Positions 230 through 27,139 of a stretch of 28,196 bases of DNA are shown in pieces (within the stretch, counting starts at the first letter, position 1; each line of letters starts with the position of its first letter). This DNA comes from Gammaproteobacteria bacterium (GTDB lineage: Bacteria > Pseudomonadota > Gammaproteobacteria > DSM-16500), in NCBI GenBank assembly GCA_013287235.1, contig JABDEF010000013.1:1-28196 (forward strand), written 5' to 3'. The notes under the pieces are model-generated. The model did no database searches. It saw only the letters and a list, made by a program, of their open reading frames with translations, and was not told the origin of the DNA. The position numbers were made by a program, and so were the translations under genes.

Positions 230-1609
230 ATGTTTTTTAAAATACTCTGGAATCGTTTTGCATTTTTTTCACTCTTATTTCTTATTATTCAACAATTGAT
301 TGTTGCCTCATCCACATTTTGGATTACCGATTTAAGTGAGGCCGTTGTCAACCATGGTAATATTTTATTATATTTAACACTTTTTGTATCATCACTTTTT
401 CTAGTATACATCCCGGGGATATTTTCAGGGTATAACTTAGAAAAATCAAAATCAAAAGCCTTATATCAGTATACACGCCATTTTTCTGATAAGTATAAAT
501 GTTTACCAGAAACGCTCTCAGATAAAGAATTTCAAAGCGAAAAAGAGCCCTGGTTAACCAATGAAAGCAGTAGAACCATTGAAGAAACTTATAGCGTTGC
601 TTATGATAGTTTAGCGACCGGCTTAAATACGTTATTCAACATTATAGCAATCTGTATCGCTATTGATTCGAGACTCGTCATCGGATATATCGCAAGTTTT
701 ATCATGCTTCCTATTGCATCAAAATATTTTAAAAATAAAATATCCGATGCAGCATTACAATTACAAAATGATAGAAAATCCCTTTCACAAACCTTATTAT
801 CGGGTTGGGATAACATTATTATTGGAAATATTTATAACTTTTCAATTTGGTGGAAGCAATATAAGGAACGTTGGGCATTCTACAATCAATCATCTGCACA
901 TGCTGTTTTAATAACACAAGTAGCGAGTACAACAGCTACCATCTTATCCTTGATTCCTATTGCTGGCATTTTTTTATGGATATTTTTCACCACCGATGAG
1001 GCTGCTAAATTAGCCGCATTAGTTGCAACGCTTCCGCGTCAAATCCAAATTATTCAACATTTTGAAATTCTTTCAACCTACGCCATGCACTGGCATGGTA
1101 CATTTGCTAAACTGAAAGCGCTTATCGCAACCATCAAAACACCTTCTTTCGACAAAGATAAATTTCTCCATCGAATTAAAAAAAATGAAGTAACCATTCT
1201 CATGAATGAAAAATCGATGGATTTTGAATCTCTCGATCAATTTATTCATACGATTACTGAAAAACCAACGGGACGTATCACTATTCGTGGTAAAAACGGC
1301 AGCGGGAAAACAACACTCATCAATTTAATTAAAAAATCTCTTGGAAATCAAGCATATTATTTACCCACCCATTCTAAACTCTTGTTTGAAAAATCCTTTG
1401 AGGAATCTTATTCCACAGGAGAGAGAATTAAAGCATATCTTGAAGAATTATCGTATACATTATTAAAATCTGAAGATACCATGCGATTTGTATTATTATT
1501 TGATGAATGGGATGCAAATCTTGATTTACAAAATAAACAAATCATATCAAACTTATTGGATGATTTTTCAAAAAAACATTGCGTCATCGAAATCAGTCAT
1601 CGATTTTAA
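230..1609 (+). CDS. ABC transporter-like membrane ATPase with compact NBD (putative peptide exporter)
   Basis: A 459-aa half-transporter-like protein, probably moving the product of the downstream peptide cluster across the inner membrane. Hydrophobic segments lie near residues 12-34, 45-66, 133-162 and 225-253. The C-terminal ATPase shows Walker A GKNGSGKT (354-361), a degenerate signature STGER (395-399), Walker B RFVLLFDEWDAN (419-430) and an H-loop histidine (457) two residues before the end. Walker A to end is only about 105 residues, against roughly 160 or more in typical NBDs, so the helical subdomain looks reduced. LPT (378-380) sits where SbmA/ABCD-type ATPases carry LPQ, so the Q-loop glutamine may be lost. 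It is first in the co-directional run, 21 bases before the JmjC gene. Substrate and direction of transport are inferred from context only. Confidence 0.75.
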   Translation: MFFKILWNRFAFFSLLFLIIQQLIVASSTFWITDLSEAVVNHGNILLYLTLFVSSLFLVYIPGIFSGYNLEKSKSKALYQYTRHFSDKYKCLPETLSDKEFQSEKEPWLTNESSRTIEETYSVAYDSLATGLNTLFNIIAICIAIDSRLVIGYIASFIMLPIASKYFKNKISDAALQLQNDRKSLSQTLLSGWDNIIIGNIYNFSIWWKQYKERWAFYNQSSAHAVLITQVASTTATILSLIPIAGIFLWIFFTTDEAAKLAALVATLPRQIQIIQHFEILSTYAMHWHGTFAKLKALIATIKTPSFDKDKFLHRIKKNEVTILMNEKSMDFESLDQFIHTITEKPTGRITIRGKNGSGKTTLINLIKKSLGNQAYYLPTHSKLLFEKSFEESYSTGERIKAYLEELSYTLLKSEDTMRFVLLFDEWDANLDLQNKQIISNLLDDFSKKHCVIEISHRF

Positions 1610-1630
1610 ATAGCTCTAGAGGAGTGATAA

Positions 1631-2872
1631 ATGAACTACAATATCAATCAACTTCTTGATGATTCTATGCATTTAACAGAACCTGTCACTTACAAAAGTT
1701 TTTTTGAACCTTCTTTTCTCAATGAATCGCACATTAAAGCAGCATTAAATTCTGCCATTTTACATCAAGCAAAAGAAAATTTTAGAATCTGGGTAGAGAG
1801 AAGTGAAAATAGCAACTTTTCAGATATCGTGATCCAAACACCACTATTTGAAAATGAATCCATAGAAGAATGGACAAAACGCATCTTTAAAGAAAATAAA
1901 TTTTGCCTCCTGTTTAGTCAGGTAGAACAATTCAATGATGATCTTGCGGTGCTCGCAAGTCAATTTTTAAAACCGCTTTTTGAAAAACGTGGCATTACCC
2001 TTGGTGGCACCAGTTTAACCGTCTTCCTCGGCAATTATGGTTTTACACCCTCTGGTGTGCATCAAGATCAAGATGAAAATTGCATATTTCATTTTCATCT
2101 AGGGCCGGGATATAAAGAATTAATGACTTGGGACCCTCACGAATTTGAAAAATTAACAGGATCGAAAGAAGCTTATTTTGAGACAGAAAAAATATTACCT
2201 CATGCAAAAGTATTTGGTTTATATCCCAATGACTTTCTTTTTTTACCCACGAAATACTATCATATTGGTAAAACCGACCAATTTTCTGTCGATTTTGTGG
2301 TCGTTCTATCAGATTGCTCTAATATTAAACTGACGGAAGATATTTTCAATAATTTAATGGCGGAGGGATTAGCCAGAAATAAAAAAACATATAAACTTGA
2401 TCTTGTCGATATGGAAGAATCCATCACAACAATGACAAGAAACATGATGAATCATCTTTGCATCAATCCTGAAAAGCGCCAAGATTCCTTTGAAAACGTT
2501 ATCAAATCACAAATGGAAGATCGTTATTTATCTATGTTAAGCAATTTCAATTTTAGCTATCCGCCTCGATTAAATCAAAAAAGTACACATGATCTTAAAT
2601 CACGAAGTATTAAAATAAAAGAACCTTTTAAAATATATTATAAAAAAATAGAAAATAATAAAATGGCTGTTTTTTTTCGCGGTCGGGAGCTCGTTGCGCC
2701 TCATTATCCTTTCATCGTTCAATTAATTGATCATATCAATATTTCATCTACACTCAATGTAGAGGATGTGACTAAACAATTCGCGACAAATGATCAAGAT
2801 AAAAAAATAATTTTATCATTTTTATCGCAAGCGATTGAACATCATGCAATAAAATTAATAGTTGCGAAATGA
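1631..2872 (+). CDS. JmjC/cupin-fold 2-oxoglutarate-Fe(II) oxygenase with winged-helix-like tail
   Basis: A 413-aa protein with an AGGAG ribosome site (1620-1624) six bases before the ATG. The cupin core shows a His-X-Asp pair in GVHQDQDEN (H144, D146) and a distal histidine in KYYHIGKTD (H211), which together make a plausible two-His-one-carboxylate iron site, as in JmjC/RoxA-type protein hydroxylases. The last ~85 residues (about 332-413) look like two or three strands followed by helices, resembling the winged-helix tail of RoxA/MINA oxygenases. In this setting that tail might also bind a leader peptide like a RiPP recognition element. It lies directly upstream of two short peptide genes, and its final bases are part of the duplicated unit (second copy at 3286). 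Likely role: hydroxylation of the cluster peptide (inferred). It could instead hydroxylate a ribosomal or other cell protein. Confidence 0.75.
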   Translation: MNYNINQLLDDSMHLTEPVTYKSFFEPSFLNESHIKAALNSAILHQAKENFRIWVERSENSNFSDIVIQTPLFENESIEEWTKRIFKENKFCLLFSQVEQFNDDLAVLASQFLKPLFEKRGITLGGTSLTVFLGNYGFTPSGVHQDQDENCIFHFHLGPGYKELMTWDPHEFEKLTGSKEAYFETEKILPHAKVFGLYPNDFLFLPTKYYHIGKTDQFSVDFVVVLSDCSNIKLTEDIFNNLMAEGLARNKKTYKLDLVDMEESITTMTRNMMNHLCINPEKRQDSFENVIKSQMEDRYLSMLSNFNFSYPPRLNQKSTHDLKSRSIKIKEPFKIYYKKIENNKMAVFFRGRELVAPHYPFIVQLIDHINISSTLNVEDVTKQFATNDQDKKIILSFLSQAIEHHAIKLIVAK

Positions 2873-3121
2873 TATAAAAAATGAAATCATAAAGCGATTT
2901 GTATAAACAAATCAAAACCATAAATTTATTGGAGATATAAAATGAAATCATTTGATTCAGAAAAAGGTAAAATAGACATATCCTATCTCAATGCTCCAGT
3001 TCCTGTTGTTGTTCCAATCGTTAGACCCCGATTAATGCGTACCGTACCATCCAATATCGCAAAAGTGATTGGTAATTTCGAAGAAACGCAACTTCAAGCT
3101 TGCGCTGTCGAAACGAATTAA
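2858..3121 (+). repeat. Tandem duplication unit A (tail of JmjC gene, leader, peptide gene 1)
   Basis: The first copy of a unit repeated at 3286-3531. It begins with the last codons of the JmjC gene (ATAGTTGC...) and includes the untranslated leader, the ribosome site GGAGATATAAA and the whole first peptide gene. The second copy keeps the JmjC tail as a non-coding scar, which sets the direction: unit B derives from a duplication that took in the gene end. Confidence 0.85.
2942..3121 (+). CDS. Putative RiPP precursor peptide 1 (59 aa)
   Basis: A short gene with GGAG (2931-2934) seven bases before the ATG. The 59-aa product has a charged N-terminus (MKSFDSEKGK), a variable Val/Pro-rich middle (residues ~11-28), a block PRLMRTVPSNIAKVIGNFE (29-47) identical to that of the second peptide, and a Gln/Cys-containing tail. 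The block differs between the two genes at four codons, all synonymous, so it is under protein-level constraint. No signal peptide or membrane segment is seen. Placed between an oxygenase and a run of modification enzymes, it is best read as a precursor. Whether the modified core is the Val/Pro stretch, the conserved block (Arg, Pro, Asn, Lys, Met available) or the tail is not decidable here. It lacks the helical borosin-binding domain known from split borosins. Confidence 0.75.
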   Translation: MKSFDSEKGKIDISYLNAPVPVVVPIVRPRLMRTVPSNIAKVIGNFEETQLQACAVETN

Positions 3122-3124
3122 TCC

Positions 3125-3287
3125 TATACCTCGCACGGGATATTTTGCGGTTTTTAGCATCCCACACGCAGTCCATCTTGACTCGTTCAAAACACTTGCA
3201 TATGAATAACATAGCGCTGCGTTTCGAACGAGTCAATCTGAACTACGTCTGGGCGCTAAAAACCGCAAAATATGCCCGCGCGAGTAT
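3125..3287. repeat. Palindromic MITE-like element, copy 1
   Basis: About 163 bases forming one long imperfect inverted repeat. The outer arms read TATA..TCGC.CGGG..TATTTTGCGGTTTTTAGC on the left, with the reverse complement on the right, and inner arms pair around CGTTC/GAACG. It begins three bases after the stop codon of peptide gene 1 and ends inside the TATAGTTGC of duplication unit B. A second copy lies in opposite orientation at 25293-25439. There is no transposase, so it is a non-autonomous element or dispersed repeat. In RNA either strand would fold into a large hairpin that could terminate or stabilise the peptide transcript. Confidence 0.8.
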
Positions 3288-3531
3288 AGTTGCAAAATGA
3301 TGTAAAAAATGAAATCATAAAGCGATTTTAACAAATCAAAACTGTAACTTTCATTGGAGATATAAAATGGATTCATTTGATTTAGAAAAAGGTAAGATGG
3401 AGGACACATCGTATATCAATGTACGTCCGGTCAATCCGCGATTAATGCGTACTGTACCGTCCAATATCGCAAAAGTAATTGGTAATTTCGAAGACATGCA
3501 GCGCCAAACTTGCGCTATCAAAACCAGTTAA
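3286..3531 (+). repeat. Tandem duplication unit B (scar of JmjC tail, leader, peptide gene 2)
   Basis: The second copy of the unit at 2858-3121. The bases from 3286 match the end of the JmjC gene with one or two changes, followed by the same AAATCATAAAGCGATTT leader, the same GGAGATATAAAATG start region and a diverged peptide gene. A small hairpin is kept in both leaders (GATTTGT/ACAAATC at 2896-2913 in unit A; GATTT/AAATC in unit B). Confidence 0.85.
3367..3531 (+). CDS. Putative RiPP precursor peptide 2 (54 aa)
   Basis: A paralogue of the 59-aa peptide, with GGAG (3356-3359) seven bases before the ATG. The N-terminus MDSFDLEKGK matches; the middle is five residues shorter and different in sequence (residues 11-23). 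The block PRLMRTVPSNIAKVIGNFE (24-42) is identical, and the tail keeps the pattern Q.Q.CA..T. Four silent changes and no replacement changes in the 19-codon block, against indels and replacements in the middle, are the mark of a real coding pair. A 15-bp hairpin follows nine bases after the stop, before the methyltransferase gene. It is probably co-modified by the same enzymes as peptide 1. No known RiPP class is matched from the peptide alone. Confidence 0.75.
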   Translation: MDSFDLEKGKMEDTSYINVRPVNPRLMRTVPSNIAKVIGNFEDMQRQTCAIKTS

Positions 3532-3539
3532 TTCATCCA

Positions 3540-3575
3540 AACACACAACAAGAAGAGACTTTCTTGTTGTGTGTT
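3540..3575 (+). terminator. 15-bp hairpin between peptide genes and enzyme genes
   Basis: A perfect 15-bp stem (ACACACAACAAGAA plus one outer A-T pair) with a 6-base loop GAGACT. There is no U-run after it, so it is not a standard intrinsic terminator. It sits 16 bases before the methyltransferase start. It may act as a partial terminator or processing/stability hairpin that keeps peptide mRNA in excess over enzyme mRNA, as known in many lantibiotic and other RiPP operons (analogy). Confidence 0.65.
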
Positions 3576-3591
3576 ATACTGAGATTCACAA

Positions 3592-4362
3592 ATGAAAACA
3601 TTAAGAATTATTGGATCTGGTATGAAAGGGACATTACATCTCACTCAAGAATCGCTCACGCACTGTCAAAAAGCAAATAAAATCCTTTGGCTGGGCGCAA
3701 TCGTAGGATTAAATACCTTTTTAAATGAAAATAAGTGGAATCATGAAGATATCACTCTGTATTATGAAAATGGTGCAATCGATCGAGATAATTATGATCG
3801 AATCAAAAATAAAATATATGATGAATTAAAAAACTATGACGATATTGCATTGATTGTTTTGGGTCACCCAAGATTAGGCGTCACGATTGTCCAAGAATTT
3901 CAAGCGGATGCCTCCATTGCGTTACAAATTCTACCCGGTATTTCCAGTTTTGACACTATGATCAACGATTTGAAAATGGACCCGATTGAAGAAGGGACAT
4001 GCTTAGTCGATGCAAATCGACTCATTCTTTATGATTATCATATGGATCCCTGTTTGAATTATTTTATTTATCATATTTGTTCGATTGGCAATGCAAGAAC
4101 CGATTATGAATCACCCGCAGAAAAAAATGCGACGCATTTCTTACAAGAAAAATTACTCAGGCATTATCCTGACACACATGAACTCATTTTATTAAAATCA
4201 GAGTCTCATGATGAAAAATCCGTTCAATATAGAGGAAAAACAGGGGAATTACAGATATTATTACAGCATGTCACTTTTGATACATCATTATTCATTCCAG
4301 CCATGCTGCCACAATATCAAAAAATGAATATGAAATTTTATCATTACCTCATGAATACATAA
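3592..4362 (+). CDS. Tetrapyrrole-methylase-fold methyltransferase, borosin N-methyltransferase-like
   Basis: A 256-aa SAM-dependent enzyme. An N-terminal IIGSGMKG (6-13) fits the SAM-binding loop of the tetrapyrrole methylase fold. GHPRLG (91-96) and LPGISSFD (114-121) match the GHP and PG(I/V)S motifs. The following stretch with CLVDAN (137-142) and the segment ending CSIGNA (163-168) resemble the part of borosin alpha-N-methyltransferases (OphMA/SonM type) that follows their PG(V/I)S motif. Borosin enzymes methylate backbone amides of peptides. Here the substrates would be the two peptides encoded upstream, giving a split arrangement. Unlike known split systems, no borosin-binding domain is visible in the peptides. 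The start has only a weak GAG upstream. The stop is four bases from the next gene. A role in cobalamin or siroheme methylation is unlikely because no such genes are nearby. Confidence 0.78.
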   Translation: MKTLRIIGSGMKGTLHLTQESLTHCQKANKILWLGAIVGLNTFLNENKWNHEDITLYYENGAIDRDNYDRIKNKIYDELKNYDDIALIVLGHPRLGVTIVQEFQADASIALQILPGISSFDTMINDLKMDPIEEGTCLVDANRLILYDYHMDPCLNYFIYHICSIGNARTDYESPAEKNATHFLQEKLLRHYPDTHELILLKSESHDEKSVQYRGKTGELQILLQHVTFDTSLFIPAMLPQYQKMNMKFYHYLMNT

Positions 4363-4366
4363 AATT

Positions 4367-5113
4367 ATGATTTCTGTCCACATTGCTGACACTAAAATAG
4401 AATGGTCTTGTCCTGAAAATCCTCAAGCCTTACTTGAATCTGTGGGATTAAACGAATTTAGACTTAAAAAACCTTGTGAAAAACGCATCGCATTCATAGA
4501 GGCTGAATTACGTACATTAGAGAATAGCTTTCAAGCAGAGCTCGCATTTATTGCCAATTTTACCCATAGGATTTTTTGGTTAGAATCGAATGAAGAAAAA
4601 GCACTTGGAAGTGCGGGCTTTTATGAAGTACCCCATGGTACTTTTTTCTCTGACTTAGCGATGTTTTCGATACCACCTGAAATTATCGTACCCAAAGAAC
4701 ATGCGCGATACGCCATCTTAGAAAATTTATATCATGAGGCACTACATCACCAAATGCATGGTATTGAAAAAAATTTGAATCAAGGTTACCTACAAAATGA
4801 TTGTATCACCATTCCAACCATTACATTATCCTGGCGAGATAGAACATTCACACTATTAGAGGCATTACATGCATTACACGTCTATGCATATGTGACACCC
4901 TTACGGCGACATTACAGCGTAATGATAAATCATACAAATGACACTATCAAAAAATCAATTCAAGATGGTTTACGAATGTGGCAAGATTTGACAAGCGTAC
5001 TGAATGCCCATTTACCTAAATTTAAGGATCCGTGGTCATCTTATATTATTGAATGGGAATTGCAGTTAAAAAAATTCACACATGAGGAGTACATACATGG
5101 CAGTCAGTTATAA
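4367..5113 (+). CDS. HExxH-motif peptide modification protein (alpha-KG-HExxH-type oxygenase candidate)
   Basis: A 248-aa protein with YHEALHHQ (HExxH at 123-127) and, about 40 residues later, LSWRDRTF followed by LLEALHALHVYAYV (163-176). This arrangement (HExxH, then a W-R stretch, then a helix with a conserved His) fits the 'HEXXH motif-containing putative peptide modification protein' family, now understood as 2-oxoglutarate-dependent beta-hydroxylases of RiPPs rather than proteases (family knowledge). The likely metal ligands are H123, H127 and a residue in the later helix (H168 candidate). The start lies four bases after the methyltransferase stop with no good ribosome site, so translation may be coupled. 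The 3' end overlaps the cupin gene by 17 bases. It could alternatively be a true metallopeptidase. Confidence 0.72.
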   Translation: MISVHIADTKIEWSCPENPQALLESVGLNEFRLKKPCEKRIAFIEAELRTLENSFQAELAFIANFTHRIFWLESNEEKALGSAGFYEVPHGTFFSDLAMFSIPPEIIVPKEHARYAILENLYHEALHHQMHGIEKNLNQGYLQNDCITIPTITLSWRDRTFTLLEALHALHVYAYVTPLRRHYSVMINHTNDTIKKSIQDGLRMWQDLTSVLNAHLPKFKDPWSSYIIEWELQLKKFTHEEYIHGSQL

Positions 5114-6254
5114 AATGTCAGAACATCGAGATATTATTTCATTATTTACGGATTTGGGTGAAAAAATTCGTATTCAATGGGCAAAACATAATTATAATGA
5201 AGATGCCTTGGTAGAAACAGCCATTGACAAGTTAGATGAAGCTCGCTTACATCAATCACTTTCAGCAGACAATTTAATTCATTATGCATTAAATCCAGAC
5301 CCCTTACAATCTGCCCACCAAATCGATCCCCCTTTTGGTGATTTACAACAAATCATGTATCGTCATGCAAGATTTTATATTGAAGCGTTATACTGGTGTG
5401 ATGGTACAACTGCCGTACATGATCATGGATTTTCTGGTGCATTTTATGTCATGACTGGCTCAAGCATTAATCTTGAATATCAATTTCAAGATGCGGAAAG
5501 GATTAATCATCATTTCTGGTTAGGAAAGCTTTCAAAACCATTGGTCAGTAAATTACAAGTGGGTTCTATTAAACCTATTTATTCAGGTAAACGATTTATC
5601 CATTCTGTGTTTCACCTTGATAATCCAACCGTTAGTATCGTCGTGCGTACTTATCAAGACGATGATGCCATGCCTCAGTTTGAATATCGTGGAAAAAATA
5701 TTCGTCTTGTCGAAGAATTTTCTCCAGAATTTGCGAAAAAAATTAAAGGATTGCGATTTTTGTTGTCATTAAATCAAGAAAAATTTTCTTATCATTTCAA
5801 ACACATGTATCTTGAATCACCACTCGATGAGCGTTATTGGCTATTACGCGCATTCTATGCTAACTTTAAACAATTTCCTTCCATCCAACAATTTCTAAAA
5901 GAAATGGATGATGTTCAAACAAACATACTCATGAAATCTATCACGCAAGAAGCGATCATTCATAAAACAATGCAGTTTAGAAACAATATCGAAGATGTAG
6001 AACTTCGATACTTTCTTGCTGTATTATTGAATTTACCCTCTTGGAGTGATGTCGTTCAATTTATACAAAATGATTATCCCAATGAAACAAATACTGTCAT
6101 AGAGCGAGCCTTATCTAATATTAAATCACACGGTTTAAAAATACCAGAAATGACGAATCATACATTAATACATGATTACAACAATGAAGAACCCATTACT
6201 TCTAATAATGTCTTATATCATTTAATTTGTAGAAAAGTACTTGCAAACACATGA
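5097..6254 (+). CDS. Cupin-domain protein, possible metal-dependent oxygenase
   Basis: A 385-aa protein. The start at 5097 is chosen because AGGAG (5085-5089) lies seven bases upstream; an earlier in-frame ATG at 5082 has no such site. It overlaps the HExxH gene end by 17 bases. A cupin core spans about residues 90-185: YWCDGTTAVHDHGFSG gives His108 and His110, with a later RFIHSVFH (H169, H173), so a metal site is plausible, similar in layout to cysteine-dioxygenase-type cupins. The C-terminal half (about 210-385) is helical and unrecognised. It overlaps the next gene by four bases (ATGA), so the two are translationally coupled. The function is not established; by position it should act on the cluster peptides or bind them. 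Confidence 0.65.
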   Translation: MAVSYKMSEHRDIISLFTDLGEKIRIQWAKHNYNEDALVETAIDKLDEARLHQSLSADNLIHYALNPDPLQSAHQIDPPFGDLQQIMYRHARFYIEALYWCDGTTAVHDHGFSGAFYVMTGSSINLEYQFQDAERINHHFWLGKLSKPLVSKLQVGSIKPIYSGKRFIHSVFHLDNPTVSIVVRTYQDDDAMPQFEYRGKNIRLVEEFSPEFAKKIKGLRFLLSLNQEKFSYHFKHMYLESPLDERYWLLRAFYANFKQFPSIQQFLKEMDDVQTNILMKSITQEAIIHKTMQFRNNIEDVELRYFLAVLLNLPSWSDVVQFIQNDYPNETNTVIERALSNIKSHGLKIPEMTNHTLIHDYNNEEPITSNNVLYHLICRKVLANT

Positions 6255-7111
6255 CCACTGAACAAATTGATTACTCGATTATCCATCACTCCACGATGTT
6301 GAGTGATAATGAACGTCTTGCCTTATTCAAAAAAGCCGTGCAGACAGTTGTTCAATCCTCAAATATTGTTGTCGATATTGGATCTGGCACAGGCATTTTA
6401 GCAGCCTATGCTGCAGAATTGGCAAGTGCAGTATATGCCATTGAATATTATGCATTTGCAGAAAATCTCGCAAAAAAAATACTCTCGAAAAGTCCCTATC
6501 AACATATAAAATTTTTAAAAGCAAACGCGTTTGACGTCAAACTACCTGAAAACCCCGATGTTTTAATCACAGAAACCATTGGTCAAATCGGCCCAGAAGA
6601 AAATATTGTTGAAATATGTTATGATTTTTTTCGTAGACATCCTTCCATTAAACACATCATACCCTTGCAATTATCACTTTATGCGGAATTTATTGATTCT
6701 CATACAGGGCGTACTTTTATTCAAAATATCATCGATGGATATCTCAACGCATCGTTTGCAGAATTTGATTATGCATGGATACAGTCCGATATTGAACAAC
6801 AATTATCAAATCATATTTTTCAACTTGATTTAAAAGATGCTGTATCACTTCGACCACCAATTTTATTAGCAGAATATGAATTAGGTAAAACAGTATCTTC
6901 TACTTTCAAAAAAAACATTTCTATCCCCTTTGATTTGAAAGAGAAACTACTTCATTTATATTTTATGGCAAAATTATCCGATGATATCATCTTATCTTCA
7001 CGATTTAATCATCAAAATCATTGGAAACATAGTTTTGCCCATATTCCAAAAAACAAAGAATCATGCATCATTTCTTATATGGCGGACTCTGGTTTTATCA
7101 AAATAGAATAA
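6251..7111 (+). CDS. PRMT-like class I SAM methyltransferase
   Basis: A 286-aa protein with SAM motif I VVDIGSGTGILAAYAA (40-55), an acidic residue at the end of strand 2 (AIEYY, E65), and DVLITETIG (103-111), which resembles the first half of the PRMT double-E loop (typically SE.MG). The C-terminal part (about 135-286) would correspond to the PRMT barrel region but is not motif-rich. Protein arginine methyltransferases modify Arg side chains; the conserved block of both peptides contains two Arg residues. Modification of those residues is a hypothesis, not shown. It begins with an ATGA overlap on the cupin gene and ends 14 bases before the next start. Confidence 0.68.
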   Translation: MTTEQIDYSIIHHSTMLSDNERLALFKKAVQTVVQSSNIVVDIGSGTGILAAYAAELASAVYAIEYYAFAENLAKKILSKSPYQHIKFLKANAFDVKLPENPDVLITETIGQIGPEENIVEICYDFFRRHPSIKHIIPLQLSLYAEFIDSHTGRTFIQNIIDGYLNASFAEFDYAWIQSDIEQQLSNHIFQLDLKDAVSLRPPILLAEYELGKTVSSTFKKNISIPFDLKEKLLHLYFMAKLSDDIILSSRFNHQNHWKHSFAHIPKNKESCIISYMADSGFIKIE

Positions 7112-7125
7112 ATAAGAGGTTCTTT

Positions 7126-7824
7126 ATGTCTAAAAATATCTTTGAAAAAGAAAAATATATGATCGTAAAAAACGTATTACCAAAATCATTTTGCGAAATT
7201 ATCGTGAATTATGCTAAATTTCAAGCGTTATATGACTTTACACCAGAGTCAGGTGATTCCGCACAGGTATTACATACGCATAGTCGATATGCGGATTTTT
7301 TAATGGAAGCTTTTTTATTGTATCTTCAACCCATTATTGAAACAACCATCGAACAACCTTTACTTCCCGCTTACAGTTATTATCGTGTTTATAAACATGG
7401 CGATAAACTCGATCCGCATATTGACCGCGATGCTTGCGAAGTGAGCGCATCTCTCGCATTCGGCTGGAAAGATGCAAAACCCTGGGCTTTTAAACTCTCG
7501 AACGACAAAGAATACATCGATGGAACAGAGGAATGCTTTATCCCATCCAGTGCTGAAAATACCATTGTCATCCATTTAGAACCCGGTGATATGCTGATTT
7601 ATTCAGGTCCTAAAGTCAAACATTGGCGTGATCCTCTTGATACAGTTGCCCATGTGCAAGCATTTTTTCATTATGTATTGGCCGATGGTCCCAATATCGC
7701 TCATCAATTTGATGGTCGGGATGCGATTGGCGTTCCAAAGTTAAGCGGAGGTTTTGAATATATTAAGCATTCGGATTGGATGAATGCATTATTGGCATAC
7801 GAGAATCAAAAAATCAAAACATGA
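7126..7824 (+). CDS. Prolyl-4-hydroxylase-like 2OG-Fe(II) oxygenase
   Basis: A 232-aa oxygenase. The start at 7126 is preferred because AAGAGG lies about six bases upstream; an in-frame ATG at 7063 would overlap the methyltransferase gene widely. The double-stranded beta-helix signature is clear: YYRVYKHGDKLDPHIDRDA with His98 and Asp100, a distal KHWRDPL (H166), and Arg168 as the likely 2-oxoglutarate anchor. This is the classic HxD...H facial triad of P4H-type enzymes. The peptides offer Pro residues inside and next to the conserved block. The stop overlaps the peptidase start (ATGA). Role in peptide hydroxylation is inferred from context; family assignment is strong. Confidence 0.8.
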   Translation: MSKNIFEKEKYMIVKNVLPKSFCEIIVNYAKFQALYDFTPESGDSAQVLHTHSRYADFLMEAFLLYLQPIIETTIEQPLLPAYSYYRVYKHGDKLDPHIDRDACEVSASLAFGWKDAKPWAFKLSNDKEYIDGTEECFIPSSAENTIVIHLEPGDMLIYSGPKVKHWRDPLDTVAHVQAFFHYVLADGPNIAHQFDGRDAIGVPKLSGGFEYIKHSDWMNALLAYENQKIKT

Positions 7825-9653
7825 ACATTGACAAAATTATTACTGAAATACACGCATTATTAAAAAATAATTATCATTTTATTGATGCATTACTTTCAGA
7901 AATTCATGCATTTACTTGGGAGAATTTTATTATCCCCATCGAAATGAAGGAATATCCTCTCGCTGAAAAAATCCATCTTTTATCTCTCTTAAATGACACG
8001 CTTGGATTATCCCACATCGAAGAAGCATTTCAAAAACTGATTCCCAATATTGAAGAGTATCAATTAGCATTTTTACACAATAAGAAGATATATTCAGCCT
8101 ATCAAGAAATTTTGAAATCGTCGCGATTATCACAACCAGAGCGTATATACATTCAAAACACGCTCACGCACGCTAAAAACTCAGGTATTGATTTAAATCA
8201 GGATCAAAGAAATCACATTAAAAATATTTTCTCTAGCCTCGCAGCACTTGAGCATGCGTTTAACAAAAATATTGAAAACGCTAAGTATTTCTTGAAAATT
8301 CAAATGCCAGATCTTACCTTAGATCATGCATCCTATCAAAATGTCATGAAATATACGGAAAATCGTGATGTACGAAAACGTCATTTTTATCATTTTTCAA
8401 CGATAGCTTCTCCCTTACAAAATCAATTCAATAATGAAAAAATCATGTATGAAATATTAGAAAATCGCATGCAGCTTACGCATTTATTGGGTTTCAATCA
8501 TTTCGCGGATTTTGCATTATCTTGTAATGCATTAAAATCCACAAATGCTGTTTTAACATTTTTATTCGATAAAATGGAAAAAATAAAAGATGTAGCCAAG
8601 CGAGAAATGGATGAGTTACGGCATTTTGCTAAATTAAATCATATTGATCCACTAGAACCATGGGATATTCTGTACTTAAGTCATTGTATACAGAAAGAGA
8701 AATTCCATCTTGATAAGACTATTTCTGAATATCGATTCCCATTAAAAAATGTATTATCTACATTATTTCAGTTAACGCATACTTTATTTGATATCAATAT
8801 TATCGAGCAAGCTCATTTTGAAACATGGCATCCAGATGTGCGTTTTTTCAATCTTTATGATGAAAGTAATCATTTGCGTGGCTCTTTTTATCTTGATTTA
8901 TTTATGAGAAATGGAAAACGTGAAGGCGCTTTTTGTGCAGATGTAAAAATTCGTTATAATAATCCGTACGGATTTCAAATCCCCGTTGCCTGCATTGTCA
9001 CAAGTTTTGAAACGAATAAAGATACTATATCACATCAAGATATGATTACTTTATTTCATGAATATGGACATTGCTTGCAAAAAATATTAACTGAGATTGA
9101 TTATTCTGAAATGTCAGGCGATAAGGCGGTACCTTTTGATACATTAGAGATCATTAGTCAATGGATGGAACATTGGTGTTTTGAGCCTGATTTACTTGCA
9201 CAAATGATTCAACCAGAAAATCTCAAATCCTATACACCATGGCTCAATCAAATTAAACAAATCAAAACATTTCATCAAGCCACACGACACATGAAAGATA
9301 TTCTACATGCTTTATTGGACATCCATTTACACACGATAGATGTGTCTTTACCCGCGAATACATCGATTCAAATGATCTATAATAATCTCTTACAATTTAT
9401 TTCTATTTTTCCGTATCGTTATTACGATCACTTTCCATGTCGTTTTATACATATATTTTCAGGTGGTTTCGCGAGTTCGTATTATAGCTATTTATATTCA
9501 GAATCTATTGCAGATAAGCTATTTGCGCAATTTCAAAAAAATGGGCTTTTTTGTAAAATCACGGGGAAAAGATTTTTATCCTTATTTATAAGTCAAGGGA
9601 TGTTTATAAATATCGATTCTTTAGTTGCCGAGTTTGAGATGACAACTTCTTAA
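7821..9653 (+). CDS. M3-family zinc metallopeptidase (oligopeptidase A/thimet-like)
   Basis: A 610-aa peptidase. The start at 7821 gives an ATGA overlap with the oxygenase; an upstream in-frame ATG at 7776 is less likely. The zinc site is LFHEYGHCL (His413, Glu414, His417), with the third ligand in DTLEIISQWMEHW (Glu443), as in PrlC/OpdA and thimet oligopeptidases. The length is shorter than the ~680 aa of PrlC, and no signal peptide is present, so it acts in the cytosol. M3 enzymes cut short peptides, so within this cluster it is a natural candidate for leader removal or for clearing unmodified peptide. It is the last gene of the overlapping run; a hairpin lies 25 bases downstream. Confidence 0.85.
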   Translation: MNIDKIITEIHALLKNNYHFIDALLSEIHAFTWENFIIPIEMKEYPLAEKIHLLSLLNDTLGLSHIEEAFQKLIPNIEEYQLAFLHNKKIYSAYQEILKSSRLSQPERIYIQNTLTHAKNSGIDLNQDQRNHIKNIFSSLAALEHAFNKNIENAKYFLKIQMPDLTLDHASYQNVMKYTENRDVRKRHFYHFSTIASPLQNQFNNEKIMYEILENRMQLTHLLGFNHFADFALSCNALKSTNAVLTFLFDKMEKIKDVAKREMDELRHFAKLNHIDPLEPWDILYLSHCIQKEKFHLDKTISEYRFPLKNVLSTLFQLTHTLFDINIIEQAHFETWHPDVRFFNLYDESNHLRGSFYLDLFMRNGKREGAFCADVKIRYNNPYGFQIPVACIVTSFETNKDTISHQDMITLFHEYGHCLQKILTEIDYSEMSGDKAVPFDTLEIISQWMEHWCFEPDLLAQMIQPENLKSYTPWLNQIKQIKTFHQATRHMKDILHALLDIHLHTIDVSLPANTSIQMIYNNLLQFISIFPYRYYDHFPCRFIHIFSGGFASSYYSYLYSESIADKLFAQFQKNGLFCKITGKRFLSLFISQGMFINIDSLVAEFEMTTS

Positions 9654-9677
9654 AATGTATGATAATATAAGTCCTCA

Positions 9678-9716
9678 CTGTCATGCCAGCCTTCTGCTTC
9701 CATGACAGATTTTTAC
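9678..9716 (+). terminator. Hairpin after M3 peptidase gene
   Basis: A perfect 8-bp stem CTGTCATG/CATGACAG (9678-9685 and 9701-9708) with a 15-base loop, followed by ATTTTTACG. It could partly terminate the peptide operon before the downstream methyltransferase. The arm and the CTGTCATGCCAGC wording recall the longer hairpin at 12898-12970, so it may be a member of a dispersed repeat. Confidence 0.5.
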
Positions 9717-9732
9717 GTTAAGGATAACTGCC

Positions 9733-10632
9733 GTGAACACGCATAAATCCCACTCCGCTGATGTATTAAATGATATCCGAGATTACTGGTATTCTCCTTC
9801 ATTTATTGCTCTTATGGCTGAGCGTTGGAAACTTCATCAAATCAAATCCATGCTCGATGTGGGTTGCGGTATAGGACATTGGGGACAATTACTCATTCCA
9901 TTTTTATCCCAAGATGCAAAAACTTCAGGGATTGATCCAGAAATAGAATGGATTAAAGCAGCAGAAGATCGCGCTCAACAAAAAAACCTACGCAACACAA
10001 CCTATCAGTTAGGCACCGCGGAACAAATTCCCTATCCCGATCATCATTTTGACATGGTTACCTGCCAAACGGTTTTAGTGCATGTCAAAGATGTTTCTAT
10101 TGCGCTCGATGAAATGTTACGTGTGTTAAAACCCGGTGGCTTAATCGCTATTGCTGAACCCAATAATTTAGTTCAGCGCGTCATTTTCAATAATTTGACC
10201 TTTCATGATTCCATAAACGACATTGTCAACTTACTGCGTTTCGAACTGATATGCGAACACGGAAGAGAAAATCTTGGTAAAGGCAATGCATCCCGCGGGG
10301 ATCTGATTCCTTATTATTTTCATCAAGCAAGATTACAATCCATTGAAGTATATCAATCGGATCTTGCAGATTATTTCATCCCGCCTTATACCACACCACG
10401 TGAAGAATGTGCGCTTCAAGGATTGAATGATGAAAATGAGACTTTTTGGAACGCAGCTCAAAATGAAATGAAAGAATTTTATTTAGCAGGCAGCGGACTG
10501 CCTCAAGATTTCGAAAAATATTGGCATCTTTTCATTCAGCACAAAAACAGAATCCTCGATGGCTATAAGAATAAAACCTTATGTTCACCAGGTGGAACGC
10601 TTATGTATCTTATCTCTGGAATTAAAAAATAA
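9733..10632 (+). CDS. Class I SAM-dependent methyltransferase
   Basis: A 299-aa protein starting at GTG, with AGGA eight bases upstream. Motif I is MLDVGCGIGHWG (40-51), an acidic residue follows strand 2 (GIDPE, 67-70), and DMVTCQTVLVHVKD followed by LRVLKPGGLIAIAEP is the usual Methyltransf_11 pattern. The substrate is unknown. It lies 79 bases after the peptidase gene on the same strand, separated by a hairpin, so it may be the last tailoring gene of the peptide cluster or an unrelated neighbour. No N-terminal targeting signal is seen. Confidence 0.78.
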   Translation: MNTHKSHSADVLNDIRDYWYSPSFIALMAERWKLHQIKSMLDVGCGIGHWGQLLIPFLSQDAKTSGIDPEIEWIKAAEDRAQQKNLRNTTYQLGTAEQIPYPDHHFDMVTCQTVLVHVKDVSIALDEMLRVLKPGGLIAIAEPNNLVQRVIFNNLTFHDSINDIVNLLRFELICEHGRENLGKGNASRGDLIPYYFHQARLQSIEVYQSDLADYFIPPYTTPREECALQGLNDENETFWNAAQNEMKEFYLAGSGLPQDFEKYWHLFIQHKNRILDGYKNKTLCSPGGTLMYLISGIKK

Positions 10633-19789: not shown

Positions 19790-21019
19790 ATGAAATCAAA
19801 TAAATCGGACAAGAGATCGGACATTTTAAAGCCCATCGATAGACATGAAAATCTATCAATGATGGAACCCCTTCTCATTTCTGAAAACTCTAAATATCGC
19901 AAAGCATTAATGGATCTTGCCATTGAATTAACTGCAAAATCAGCAAGCTTCAAAAGCAGTTTACCAAAAGCAATACAATCCTCGCTTGCAACTTTTGTAC
20001 GTGCCATGAATTGTTATTACAGTAATTTGATCGAAGGGCACGATACGCATCCTATTGACATCGAACGGGCATTGCAAGGTCATTACAGCACCGATAGCAA
20101 AAAACGAATTTTACAAAAAGAAGCCAAAGCACATATCGCTGTCCAAGAGTGGATAGATCAGGGCGGCATTAAAGATAGCCCTTTTACAGCAAATGTCCTA
20201 TGCGAAATTCATAAACGCTTTTGCCGCTCGCTGCCTGATGATTTATTATGGATTGAAAACCCAGATACAAAAACTTTAATTAAAGTTATCCCCGGTGAAT
20301 TTCGAAAAATGGATGTCACAGTAGGTCATCATATTCCCATTAGTCCTGGCGCAATACCGCGTTTTCTTTCACGTTTTGAATCGGTTTACAGTCATTCAGG
20401 CAAAGCAGAATCCATTCTTGCCTTGGCAGCGTCTCATCACCGATTATTATGGATACATCCTTTTTTGGATGGAAATGGAAGAGTAGCACGCTTAATGTCT
20501 CATGCCATCACACTGAATGTACTTGACACAGGCGGCTTATGGTCAATTTCACGTGGACTTGCGCGTCATGTGAATCAATATAAAGCATTAATCATGAATT
20601 GTGATGTATTACGAAGAAATGATTTAGATGGACGAGGTAACTTAAGTGAAGAGTCGTTGGTTGATTTTACGCGCTTCTTCCTTGAAATGTGCATAGATCA
20701 AATTGATTTTATGAAAAATGTTATGCAACCAGATCATTTACGCACGAGAATCTTATTGTGGGCTCGCGAAGAAATAGAACTCAAGCACTTACCTCCTCAA
20801 TCGATGCAAATATTAGAGGCGATTTTGTATCGCGGCGAAATTTCTAGAAAAGACATCGCTGAAATTTTACATATTACCGATAGACATGCGAGACGTTTGA
20901 CACTGCCACTCGTTGAAAAAGGTATTCTTATTTCTGATTCACCAAAATCACCGCTTAAATTAGCCTTTCCTGCAACACTCGCGAGTCGGTGGATGCCGGG
21001 GTTATTTCCAGTCGAATAA
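19790..21019 (+). CDS. Class II Fic-family protein (predicted AMPylator) with C-terminal winged helix
   Basis: A 409-aa protein. The Fic core motif is intact: HPFLDGNGRVAR (223-234) with catalytic His223. An inhibitory helix motif SNLIEG (78-83) lies N-terminal to the core, placing it in class II (autoinhibited by Glu82). Fic enzymes usually transfer AMP from ATP to Ser/Thr/Tyr hydroxyls of proteins. The last ~75 residues (335-409), with EISRKDIAEILHITDRHARR, form a DNA-binding-type winged helix that could autoregulate the gene. A Fic C-terminal fragment at 21389 shows that another copy once existed nearby. It could be a housekeeping regulator, a toxin-like protein or a translocated effector; nothing here decides. 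Confidence 0.88.
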   Translation: MKSNKSDKRSDILKPIDRHENLSMMEPLLISENSKYRKALMDLAIELTAKSASFKSSLPKAIQSSLATFVRAMNCYYSNLIEGHDTHPIDIERALQGHYSTDSKKRILQKEAKAHIAVQEWIDQGGIKDSPFTANVLCEIHKRFCRSLPDDLLWIENPDTKTLIKVIPGEFRKMDVTVGHHIPISPGAIPRFLSRFESVYSHSGKAESILALAASHHRLLWIHPFLDGNGRVARLMSHAITLNVLDTGGLWSISRGLARHVNQYKALIMNCDVLRRNDLDGRGNLSEESLVDFTRFFLEMCIDQIDFMKNVMQPDHLRTRILLWAREEIELKHLPPQSMQILEAILYRGEISRKDIAEILHITDRHARRLTLPLVEKGILISDSPKSPLKLAFPATLASRWMPGLFPVE

Positions 21020-21437: not shown

Positions 21438-21851
21438 TTAATTTTTTAACCAATTCTCAACCGACAAATCCGGAACTCTTAAAAATTCCCGTTCGTTTGC
21501 TGTTATTAAAATTGCATCCAAGGTAAGTGCATGTGCTGCAATAAGCATATCATTCGCGCTAATTATTTGACCTTTTTTTTCTAAAACAACGCGTAATTTT
21601 GCATAATAACGATCAACATCATCTGATAATGGTTGTACAATGATATTCGATAATAATAACTCTACTCTAGATATTAAATGCTTTGAATTTTTTTTTAAAG
21701 CACCATAACGTAACTCGCAAGCTACAATAATGCTAGTACAAAATGAAGTGTTATCTAGCTTTACAATTTTTTGTGCTAAAATACCAGAAGGATTTTTAAT
21801 CAGCTCTGACAATATATTCGTATCAAATAAATAATATTTTGTTTTTTTCAT
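21438..21851 (-). CDS. vapC: VapC-family PIN-domain toxin (RNase)
   Basis: A 137-aa PIN-domain protein, the toxin of a type II toxin-antitoxin pair; such enzymes cut tRNA or rRNA with Mg2+. The acidic active site is visible: YLFDTN (Asp10), VACELRYG (Glu46), ISANDMLIAAHA (Asp101) and ITANEREF at the fourth position (Asn119 where many have Asp). The gene lies three bases after the antitoxin stop, in the same transcript. A broken second copy is at 17945-18015. Length is normal for the family. Confidence 0.88.
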   Translation of the reverse strand: MKKTKYYLFDTNILSELIKNPSGILAQKIVKLDNTSFCTSIIVACELRYGALKKNSKHLISRVELLLSNIIVQPLSDDVDRYYAKLRVVLEKKGQIISANDMLIAAHALTLDAILITANEREFLRVPDLSVENWLKN

Positions 21852-21854
21852 TAT

Positions 21855-22097
21855 TTAAAACTCTACATCATCTAATGGCAAATCAGGTATATTAGGAAAC
21901 TCTTCTTTAAGCGGTTTCCAACTAGATAAGAGCGCCGCTAGATTATTTTTTTTTTCAACCGGCTCAATAATGAGACATGCACCTTCCTTGTGGATAAGAA
22001 CCTCTTTACCTGGGAATTCAAATTCGCGAGGAATCCTAACCGCTTGATTGCGGCCATTACGAAATAAATTTGCATGACGAATATGTGGCGTTGTCAT
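21855..22097 (-). CDS. vapB: VapB-family antitoxin (AbrB/SpoVT fold)
   Basis: An 80-aa protein; the start at 22097 is fixed by a strong AGGAGG eight to nine bases upstream, while the open frame continues to 22154. The N-terminal half, ANLFRNGRNQAVRIPREFEF then GKEVLIHKEG, is a swapped-hairpin AbrB DNA-binding domain. The acidic C-terminal half should wrap and block the toxin. It probably represses its own promoter at 22109-22148. Confidence 0.88.
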   Translation of the reverse strand: MTTPHIRHANLFRNGRNQAVRIPREFEFPGKEVLIHKEGACLIIEPVEKKNNLAALLSSWKPLKEEFPNIPDLPLDDVEF

Positions 22098-22108
22098 AAA
22101 ACCTCCTA

Positions 22109-22148
22109 AGCATATGTTAAGCATATGCCAGGAAGTTGGATTTGTCAA
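22109..22148 (-). promoter_or_regulatory. vapBC promoter and operator
   Basis: On the minus strand TTGACA (22148-22143), a 17-base spacer, then TATGCT (22125-22120). Two direct AGCATATG words on the plus strand (22109-22116 and 22120-22127) are 11 bases, one helical turn, apart and overlap the -10 box. They are the likely binding site for VapB-VapC autorepression. Confidence 0.75.
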
Positions 22149-22160
22149 GGGCAACCGAAA

Positions 22161-25472: not shown

Positions 25473-26258
25473 TTAATTCCTCGGCTTACAAATCATTGCC
25501 GTAATTTTTGCATTTAACGATTGAGGAAACAACCATAATAAAAAAACAAAAATCTTGTTAATCATGCCAGTGATAATAACCGATTTATTTTTCATCAATT
25601 GATCATATCCAATCGTTGCCACCTGTTCAGCTGTCATGATCGGAAACATACGATCCATCATCGCAGCCCCTTTTAAACCTGCGCGGGCTTGAAATTCAGT
25701 TTCAGTATATCCAGGGCATAATGCAGAAATGATGACACCGTCATTCTTATATTCTTCATACAATGCAACTGAAAAGGATAACACATACGCTTTTGTGGCA
25801 TAATACATCGCCATATAGGGCCCAGGCGCATATGCCGCAATCGATGCAACATTTAAGATTTTTCCCTGTTTTTTAGCTGTCATGTATGGCAATACACGAT
25901 ACGTTAATTCGGTTAATACGCGGATATTCACTGCCAACATACCTTCCACATCTTCTTTTGACATATTCGTAAATTTCGATGATTTACCGAAACCTGCATT
26001 ATTCACTAACACATCTAAATTTATGATGTCTTCTTTAAATGTATTCATGATTTCATCGACAGCATTCGATTCACTTAAGTCAAGCGGTAAAATTTTTGAT
26101 GTGCATTGATAAGTGTTTTTTAATTCTTGTTGCAAACTTTCTAATTCGGATGTGGTACGCGCAATGAGAATTAAAGAATAACCGTTTTTTGCAAATACTT
26201 TCGCCAATTCTCGTCCGATGCCTTTTGAGGCACCCGTAATCAACGCCATTTTACTCAT
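25473..26258 (-). CDS. Short-chain dehydrogenase/reductase (SDR)
   Basis: A 261-aa classical SDR. The cofactor motif is LITGASKGIG (6-15, TGxxxGxG), with DLS (about 60-62) and VNNAG (85-89). The catalytic set is Ser139 in NVASIAAY, Tyr152 and Lys156 in YYATKAY. The C-terminal end carries a hydrophobic stretch (KIFVFLLWLFP), suggesting membrane association, as in the DltE/YdfG-like branch acting on lipids. The start overlaps the U-box gene stop by four bases (ATGA), so both come from one transcript. Arg33 after strand 2 suggests NADPH preference. Confidence 0.88.
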   Translation of the reverse strand: MSKMALITGASKGIGRELAKVFAKNGYSLILIARTTSELESLQQELKNTYQCTSKILPLDLSESNAVDEIMNTFKEDIINLDVLVNNAGFGKSSKFTNMSKEDVEGMLAVNIRVLTELTYRVLPYMTAKKQGKILNVASIAAYAPGPYMAMYYATKAYVLSFSVALYEEYKNDGVIISALCPGYTETEFQARAGLKGAAMMDRMFPIMTAEQVATIGYDQLMKNKSVIITGMINKIFVFLLWLFPQSLNAKITAMICKPRN

Positions 26259-27139
26259 AGTTTAGGACCTTCTTTTAATTTATTACTGGGTAACAATTTA
26301 CTATTATACTTTTCCATCAAAGATTTTAAATTTCGATTTGATATTAAAACATCAAATACAGATTGATCATTTTTCATTTTTGCACGTGTGACAGGCGAGT
26401 CTTTATGGACATATAACCATCTCGCAATCGCTTCCTTCTCGTAGGTATGTCCATCTAATGTACATAAAACAGGATCTTGCATTTTTGTAAAATTAATAGG
26501 ACAAATAAATTCTTCAATTGTCTCTGAATCGTCTTCAGAAATTTTTCTTGTCACTTTATTAAAAGAAATCAACATTTCGTGTAACAGCTTAGAAAAATAG
26601 CAAACCAGGCGAAAAGATTCTGGTGTTGTATCATCCAAACCTGTCATTTTTGTTATTTGTTCGCTAATTTGTGGTGATAGCCCAATTAAAAAAACAGCTT
26701 TTCCTAAGGTGGTTAAAGATAATTGAGTACTCGCAAGAAAACTCAAAGCAAAACTGCCCCAATATACCGTTTGTTTCATATCTTCTCGTGTATGATTACG
26801 CGATATCATCAAAATGTTGATGTGATCATGCTTGGTCTTATCAACAATCTGAGACATTTTTTGAACTAACTTAATAGTGTTTGCAATTTCATCTGTCGTA
26901 GATTCTATTTTTTCATCATTAAATTCAGCAATGAGACTTTCGAGATCTTTCATTAAACAAGAAATAACATCATATTTTTTTTGATCATCTGACTCTGATC
27001 CGTTTAGAAGAGCGGCTTTTTTTAATTCGTGCTCTTTATCACGTAATTTGCTCACTATGTTATATGGCTGCCTTAGCAATTCAGAACTTTCAAATCTTCC
27101 GTGCTTAAACTTAGACCAGAATAATCCTCCTGAAAACAT
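26255..27139 (-). CDS. U-box protein, predicted E3 ubiquitin ligase effector
   Basis: A 294-aa protein with AAGGAG about nine bases before the ATG. The C-terminal U-box (about 209-281) is complete: EFICPINFTKMQDPVLCTLD then GHTYEKEAIARWLYVH, SPVT, and NRNLKSLMEKY. U-boxes bind E2 enzymes and promote ubiquitin transfer, a purely eukaryotic process, so the protein is expected to act in a host cell, like LubX of Legionella (family knowledge). The N-terminal ~120 residues are helical and a hydrophobic stretch (about 127-156) may be a membrane segment; this would be the targeting part. The C-terminus is Lys/Ser-rich and short. A secretion signal cannot be proved here. It is operonic with the SDR gene. 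Confidence 0.88.
   Translation of the reverse strand: MFSGGLFWSKFKHGRFESSELLRQPYNIVSKLRDKEHELKKAALLNGSESDDQKKYDVISCLMKDLESLIAEFNDEKIESTTDEIANTIKLVQKMSQIVDKTKHDHINILMISRNHTREDMKQTVYWGSFALSFLASTQLSLTTLGKAVFLIGLSPQISEQITKMTGLDDTTPESFRLVCYFSKLLHEMLISFNKVTRKISEDDSETIEEFICPINFTKMQDPVLCTLDGHTYEKEAIARWLYVHKDSPVTRAKMKNDQSVFDVLISNRNLKSLMEKYNSKLLPSNKLKEGPKL

What the first reader, a model, noticed from the sequence alone, without database searches (positions are those of the whole stretch)
230..10632. Undescribed RiPP cluster: two short peptides surrounded by seven modification enzymes, a peptidase and an exporter
A single co-directional run with several ATGA overlaps joins an ABC transporter-like gene, a JmjC oxygenase, twin short peptides, a borosin-like methyltransferase, an HExxH modification protein, a cupin, a PRMT-like methyltransferase, a P4H-like oxygenase and an M3 peptidase, with another methyltransferase just beyond. 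Each family is recognisable on its own; this combination acting on 54-59 aa peptides is not one I know. The expected product is a heavily hydroxylated and methylated peptide from a host-associated bacterium.
Basis: partly seen in the sequence, partly recalled or inferred. Interest (0 to 1): 0.93.

Follow-up and report, generated by a model that had tools for sequence, protein, structure and literature searches.

The report
Borosin-type cluster with swapped key arginine
This bacterial DNA carries two tiny peptide genes beside a set of genes for predicted peptide-decorating enzymes, a peptidase and a likely exporter; the central enzyme belongs to a family found just downstream of similar peptide genes in several bacterial phyla, with an aspartate where studied relatives depend on an arginine, so the cluster likely makes an unusual, heavily modified peptide.

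Summary
Two peptide genes (59 and 54 aa) share a 19-residue block and lie just upstream of a gene whose protein family matches borosin backbone N-methyltransferases (profile E 1.6e-26 to MroMA1, 7e-19 to SonM). The peptides are conserved with the enzyme: a strict block motif hits 14 of 4387 ORFs in 29 sequences, all just upstream of this methyltransferase, in five phyla. In Serratia, Rouxiella and Paludibacterium the block is a tandem repeat, which suggests it is the core. The precursors are too short for the borosin-binding domain of type IV borosins, and the methyltransferase clade has aspartate where SonM needs Arg67 (17 of 17 clade loci; Arg in 7 of 7 outgroup loci). Profiles or predicted folds support an alphaKG-HExxH oxygenase, a YcfD-like JmjC oxygenase, a PRMT-like methyltransferase and an M3 peptidase; the cupin-like and P4H-like genes rest on motifs, and the last methyltransferase is not tied to the cluster. 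Best reading: a BBD-less split-borosin-type RiPP cluster; no chemistry is shown. BBD-less borosins are in print, so this is a new variant of a known kind. Two key borosin surveys could not be read, and the source organism was not established.

The parts
230..1609 (+). ABC exporter-like protein (459 aa), likely exporter
   Evidence: Weak ABC hits below cut-off; homologues directly after the methyltransferase in L009, L010, L012 and L034
1631..2872 (+). JmjC oxygenase, predicted fold of the arginyl hydroxylase YcfD
2942..3121 (+). Precursor peptide A, 59 aa, block at residues 29-47
   Evidence: Relatives P0080, P0081; strict block motif
3137..3276 (+). Element with 22-base inverted arms between the two precursor genes
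   Evidence: Arms 3137-3158 and 3255-3276, 95% complementary
3367..3531 (+). Precursor peptide B, 54 aa, block at residues 24-42
   Evidence: Duplicate of A, block identical
3540..3575 (+). Perfect 15-base inverted repeat between precursor B and the methyltransferase
   Evidence: no T run, function unknown
3592..4362 (+). Borosin-family methyltransferase (256 aa), Asp64 at the SonM Arg67 position
   Evidence: PF00590 above cut-off; PDB profile hits MroMA1, OphMA, SonM
4367..5113 (+). HExxH protein, predicted alphaKG-HExxH oxygenase
5082..6254 (+). Cupin-like protein (390 aa), assignment by motif only
   Evidence: No match in Pfam, NCBIfam or PDB sequences
6251..7111 (+). PRMT-like methyltransferase
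   Evidence: Profile of 7 rows: E 9.3e-18 to PRMT9; relatives near the methyltransferase in L004, L005, L007, L008, L011, L013
7126..7824 (+). P4H-like 2OG-Fe(II) oxygenase, weakly supported
   Evidence: PF13532 E 0.01, below cut-off; HxD and distal H seen by eye
7821..9653 (+). M3 metallopeptidase, likely trims the peptide
   Evidence: PF01432 E 1.2e-87; start by ATGA overlap
9733..10632 (+). Class I methyltransferase; membership of the cluster untested
   Evidence: PF13847 E 4.1e-22; no relative found near the methyltransferase in 16 loci

Best explanation
This is a gene cluster that likely makes a ribosomal peptide of the borosin type: two short precursor genes lie just upstream of a borosin-family methyltransferase gene whose product is predicted to N-methylate the backbone of their shared 19-residue block, while the neighbouring gene products would hydroxylate and methylate its side chains, trim it and export it. 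The block is read as the core because in Serratia, Rouxiella and Paludibacterium it is the unit of a tandem repeat, and in the Sphingomonas and Alteromonadales relatives the repeat unit is little more than a variant of the block. The precursors have only 23-28 residues before the block, too few for the 53-residue borosin-binding domain of SonA, so recognition would be by the block itself, perhaps through its invariant arginine. The JmjC protein, whose predicted fold is that of the arginyl hydroxylase YcfD, would act on an arginine of the block, and the HExxH, P4H-like and PRMT-like proteins on other side chains. The M3 peptidase would trim the ends and the ABC protein export the product. Linkage, repeats, families and the Asp/Arg swap are shown; folds are predicted; every chemical step, trimming and export are inferred.
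For: Borosin-family match: window protein E 1.9e-13 to MroMA1, profile 1.6e-26 MroMA1 and 7e-19 SonM. Block motif in 14 of 4387 ORFs, all just upstream of the methyltransferase, and P0080 with the same longest-contig length (70699) as methyltransferase P0002 and JmjC P0086. Clade branch 100/99. Tandem blocks in L003, L006, L019, L020, variants in L005, L011, L013. HExxH after the methyltransferase in 6 of 17 clade loci, PRMT near it in 6 of 17, an MFS-type or ABC gene in 12 of 17. Folds. PRMT. M3.
Against: The clade has Asp where SonM Arg67 is needed (R67K about 100-fold loss, R67A trace activity; PMC8429565 passages), so N-methylation is not assured; by residue spacing the SonM Tyr58 position is also not Tyr here (Thr55), though L022-L027 lack it too. 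Strong block conservation is more usual for a leader than for a core. JmjC, cupin-like, P4H-like, M3 and the last methyltransferase have no relatives near the methyltransferase in the loci compared, so the full set is seen in one contig only. L014 is in the clade without a recognised block. No product mass is known.
Confidence: 0.7

Rival explanations
1. The block is a recognition sequence, repeated before each core in some species, and the modified core is the variable stretch beside it, such as the Pro/Val-rich NAPVPVVVPIV of precursor A or the short spacers of the repeat precursors.
For: The block is the most conserved part, as leaders usually are; precursors A and B differ mainly outside it.
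Against: In L011 and L013 repeat units of about 16 residues leave hardly any spacer; in L019, L020 and L006 the last copy ends the peptide.
Confidence: 0.14
2. The methyltransferase clade has changed reaction: with Asp in place of the clamp arginine it methylates something other than a backbone amide, for example a side chain or the peptide end, still within a RiPP pathway.
For: Invariant Asp64 in 17 of 17 clade loci and 73 of 77 protein relatives; the SonM arginine is essential (PMC8429565 passages).
Against: Tyr58, Tyr68 and the GHP motif are kept, and the whole sequence aligns with backbone N-methyltransferases.
Confidence: 0.12
3. The peptides are not natural-product precursors but small cellular proteins whose block is a regulatory site set by these enzymes.
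For: The closest folds of the JmjC model are oxygenases that act on ribosomal proteins, by their entry titles; no product is known.
Against: Tandem-repeat precursors and an MFS-type or ABC gene beside the methyltransferase in 12 of 17 clade loci.
Confidence: 0.04

Closest known systems
Type IV split borosins (SonM/SonA of Shewanella oneidensis; PMC8429565, passages read)
   Same: Separate methyltransferase and precursor; same methyltransferase family.
   Different: No room for the borosin-binding domain; Asp in place of Arg67; several more predicted tailoring enzymes; tandem blocks in relatives.
BBD-less split borosins, 'Class 4' in PMC11395268 (first part of five and passages read)
   Same: Methyltransferase and core peptide are separate proteins and no BBD is seen.
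   Different: That text gives no block motif or tailoring set; its types V-X were defined in papers I could not read, so identity with one of them is open.
Fused fungal borosins (OphMA, MroMA1)
   Same: Methyltransferase fold by profile.
   Different: There the core is fused to the enzyme.
Biphenomycin RiPP clusters (bip/bpm/pbs; PMC12707348 and PMC12257519, passages read)
   Same: A JmjC hydroxylase and an alphaKG-HExxH hydroxylase act on one precursor, one of them on a residue made from arginine.
   Different: MNIO, arginase and B12 radical SAM chemistry; no borosin methyltransferase or PRMT in the passages seen.
alphaKG-HExxH oxygenases (ChlB domain 8s5f, SjiH 22ob; PflC/PosC in PMC12636437, abstract and introduction read)
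   Same: HExxH motif and predicted fold.
   Different: 8-14% identity; below the NCBIfam cut-off.
YcfD-type ribosomal oxygenases
   Same: Predicted fold of the JmjC protein over nearly its whole length.

Membership tests
Borosin alpha-N-methyltransferases | TP-methylase fold enzyme related in sequence to OphMA and SonM | tested here: met
Borosin alpha-N-methyltransferases | Arginine at the SonM Arg67 position | tested here: not met
   Asp64 in the window; Asp in 17 of 17 clade loci, Arg in 7 of 7 outgroup loci; L016-L018 could not be aligned there. SonM numbering mapped through MroMA1, dbOphM and residue spacing
Borosins | Backbone N-methylated product | not testable with these tools
   Needs mass spectrometry
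Type IV split borosins | Precursor separate from the methyltransferase | tested here: met
Type IV split borosins | Five-helix borosin-binding domain (53 residues in SonA) before the core | tested here: not met
   Only 28 and 23 residues precede the block; length argument, no structure compared
BBD-less split borosins (Class 4 of PMC11395268) | Separate proteins and no BBD anywhere in the cluster | tested here: inconclusive
   Precursors and the 256-aa methyltransferase leave no room; the other cluster proteins were not searched for a BBD
RiPP cluster | Short precursor conserved next to modifying enzymes in other genomes | tested here: met
   12 of 17 other clade loci by strict motif, 3 more by a variant seen by eye
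alphaKG-HExxH peptide hydroxylases | HExxH motif in the characteristic fold | tested here: met
alphaKG-HExxH peptide hydroxylases | alphaKG-dependent hydroxylation | not testable with these tools
   Needs enzyme assay
Protein arginine methyltransferases | Sequence relation to PRMTs including the double-E and THW loops | tested here: met
   E 9.3e-18 to PRMT9, matches to PRMT1, 3 and 8 run to profile position 261; ETIGxIxPEE and HW invariant, THW in six of seven rows with NHW in the window; the motif names are recalled
JmjC ribosomal-oxygenase type | HxD...H iron site in a JmjC fold with C-terminal winged helix | tested here: met
   H144, H211 invariant, D146 not in all rows; YcfD match over residues 1-410
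Cupin oxygenases | Cupin family match for 5082-6254 | tested here: inconclusive
   No hit in Pfam, NCBIfam or PDB sequences; no model was made
2OG-Fe(II) oxygenases (P4H-like) | Family match for 7126-7824 | tested here: inconclusive
   PF13532 at 0.01, below cut-off; no PDB hit

The most novel reading that the evidence does not exclude
This clade has moved a key group from enzyme to substrate: the arginine that SonM-type methyltransferases supply is replaced by Asp64, and the invariant arginine of every precursor block docks on that aspartate and supplies the guanidinium in trans, so the block is its own recognition element and no borosin-binding domain is needed. In the window lineage a YcfD-like oxygenase and a PRMT-like enzyme then modify arginines of the same block.
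Probability: 0.14. Interest if true: 0.88.

Novelty: new variant of a known kind. Interest (0 to 1): 0.74.

Why it matters
If true, it joins predicted backbone N-methylation to several predicted hydroxylases and a PRMT-like enzyme on one short peptide, in a family with a recognisable precursor block in five phyla, so it can be mined by sequence. The Asp-for-Arg swap, found together with precursors that lack room for a binding domain, makes a direct test of how borosin methyltransferases hold and activate their substrate. Tandem-block precursors in Serratia and Paludibacterium offer cultivable models.

Tried and rejected
Host: no genome is held. A conserved gene (FAA hydrolase) matched 23 of 369 unnamed Gammaproteobacteria at E 1e-60 with at most 60% identity, and a second flanking gene matched weakly in 1 of 20 chosen genomes; neither places the window. 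The Legionellales idea is left open.

Spread: 7 of 369 Gammaproteobacteria passed E 1e-25, the centre genome itself with a clade-level score and six of the Arg type; 4 of 232 Chlamydiota passed, one a fragment. Viral contigs: 16 pattern matches, no relative. Precursor A has no match in plasmids.

Homology of the window's P4H-like gene with the 2OG oxygenases of relatives: none at phmmer E < 1 or by profile comparison; one row (L002) was read in a wrong frame, so that negative is weak. JmjC relatives occur in 32 plasmid records (20 listed); two whose neighbours I looked at, in Pantoea and Nostoc, have no methyltransferase of this family nearby.

A first tree had four rows translated on the wrong strand (L022, L023, L027, L028) and is discarded; one search replaces it. 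One enzyme per residue: HExxH and PRMT presence does not track the block letters. A second arginine (block position 5) occurs in precursors A, B, P0080 and P0081; a JmjC gene is seen or likely for the first three; no block of the 12 other strict-motif loci has it and no JmjC was found there. This is very few independent cases. Promoter and terminator scans are near the shuffled level and were not used. Rfam and tRNA scans: nothing.

Print: borosin (30 of 32 papers listed), HExxH with RiPP, HExxH with borosin (none of the 15 listed of 19 holds both), split-borosin terms, RiPP with arginine methyltransferase (10 of 61 listed), block letters (0 papers), JmjC with RiPP (2 papers, both biphenomycin); one search was too loose to use. 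Imani 2022 and Cho 2022 (recalled) are not held, so a prior description there is not excluded.
Full report
What is there. The window (28,196 bases, 34.7% G+C) holds on the + strand from 230 to 9653 a tight run of ten genes: ABC-like, JmjC-like, two short peptides, a borosin-family methyltransferase, HExxH, cupin-like, PRMT-like, P4H-like and M3 peptidase; a class I methyltransferase follows at 9733-10632 after 79 bases. Two junctions are exact ATGA overlaps. The two peptide genes are duplicates that include the stretch before the start codon; between them lies an element with 22-base inverted arms, and a perfect 15-base hairpin separates precursor B from the methyltransferase. Within the shared 19-residue block all four base differences are synonymous, whereas 18 of the 25 differences elsewhere fall in codons that change the residue: the block is under selection as protein.

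The peptides belong to the methyltransferase. A search of 5.8 billion proteins with precursor A found, besides precursors A and B, P0080 and P0081. A search with the methyltransferase found 77 relatives besides itself, and a scan of genome contigs gave 18 loci, of which L001-L014 prove to be of its clade. In the window and in 12 of the 17 a small ORF just upstream (within about 420 bases) matches one strict motif; L005, L011 and L013 have a variant recognised by eye, L009 has hardly any upstream sequence, and L014 has none that I recognised. Over the 29 sequences scanned the motif hits 14 of 4387 ORFs, all of them these, and none in 20 shuffles of 4086 ORFs; a looser motif hits 79 ORFs, near its shuffled level of 66, and was not used. 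The motif was written from sequences already seen, so only L028 is an independent hit. The loci outside the clade (L015-L018, L022-L027, L031) have no strict hit.

The block is probably the core. L003, L006, L019 and L020 hold three copies with short spacers, L001 two, L002 two and a degenerate one, L005 four variant copies, and L011 and L013 three variant units of about 16 residues with hardly any spacer. The window, P0080, P0081 and the Acinetobacter, Nostoc, Myxococcota, Bdellovibrionota and Chlamydiota peptides hold one. That conservation is leader-like is kept as a rival.

The methyltransferase. Its profile matches fused fungal borosins and SonM in the PDB, and a tree of 24 rows puts the clade behind a branch of support 100/99 from L015 and L022-L027; L014 sits in it on a long branch and is uncertain. 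SonA carries a five-helix borosin-binding domain of 53 residues (PMC8429565, passages); here 28 and 23 residues precede the block. The sharpest difference is one residue: the position aligned with SonM Arg67, where Lys costs about 100-fold and Ala leaves trace activity (PMC8429565, passages), is Asp64, Asp in 17 of 17 clade loci and in 73 of 77 protein relatives (3 gaps in fragments, 1 Tyr), Arg in 7 of 7 outgroup loci; L016-L018 could not be aligned there. The mapping runs through printed alignments to MroMA1 and dbOphM and the Arg/Asp-to-Tyr spacing of four, since SonM's own letters were not printed. Tyr58 and Tyr68 (the SonM Tyr71 position by spacing) are kept; the SonM Tyr58 position is Thr55. 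Every precursor block has an arginine, which invites the novel case; that is inference only.

Across the clade the shared part is precursor plus methyltransferase and the rest is exchanged: HExxH, 2OG oxygenase and MFS-type protein (Serratia L001 and L019, Biostraticola, Rouxiella, Paludibacterium); PRMT and MFS-type (Acinetobacter), with a 2OG oxygenase as well in Nostoc and the Myxococcota MAG; HExxH, PRMT and 2OG oxygenase (Photorhabdus); PRMT, methyltransferase and Asp/Asn-hydroxylase-type protein (Sphingomonas, Alteromonadales MAG); ABC and radical SAM (Chlamydiota, Bdellovibrionota). Family scans were run on representatives only (L004-L007, L012, L013); the others are placed by sequence clustering, and the MFS match of L006 is below its Pfam cut-off though L019's is annotated MFS. 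The window has the largest set. Its JmjC gene likely travels with the cluster in close relatives, judged only by equal longest-contig lengths (70699, 27865, 22661).

Novelty. BBD-less split borosins are named as a class in PMC11395268 (part 1 of 5 and passages read), and types V-X are credited there to papers I could not read. I call this a new variant of a known kind. The searches of the held library showed nothing on the block, the Asp swap, or a borosin cluster with HExxH, JmjC and PRMT genes; their listings were partly cut and the library lacks most subscription papers.

Shown: gene order, block conservation, linkage, repeats, family profiles, the Asp/Arg swap. Predicted: folds of HExxH and JmjC. 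Inferred and untested: every chemical step, the core boundaries, trimming, export and the host.

Noticed in passing
L034:7352-9344 (-), L012:1856-3846, L010:2840-4889, L009:952-2963: In Chlamydiota and Bdellovibrionota the clade methyltransferase is followed by an ABC protein and a small radical SAM protein (CxxxCxxC seen in L010 and L012), an alternative tailoring set.
   Followed up: partly
L020:8735-9378; NZ_CP074169.1:22120-23090: Serratia plasmids carry decaying copies: pE17 has precursor plus a 139-aa methyltransferase frame, and a S. ureilytica plasmid keeps about the oxygenase end only.
   Followed up: partly
L032:4838-10198 (Pantoea sp. JZ29 plasmid pJZ29-02): A relative of the JmjC gene lies with genes annotated arginase, a second cupin protein and MFS, reminiscent of biphenomycin-type clusters.
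   Followed up: no
3137-3276: Palindromic element of about 140 bases between the duplicate precursor genes, possibly a small mobile element.
   Followed up: no
26255-27139 (-): Protein with a eukaryote-like U-box domain (PF04564 E 1.8e-10), suggesting a host-associated bacterium.
   Followed up: no
19790-21019 (+) and 21438-22154 (-): Fic-domain protein, and a PIN toxin with MazE-like antitoxin pair.
   Followed up: no
L005:11715-12620 and L007:13507-14382: Two clade-cluster proteins without a convincing family match (L005: none in Pfam or NCBIfam; L007: only a weak below-cut-off Pfam hit).
   Followed up: no
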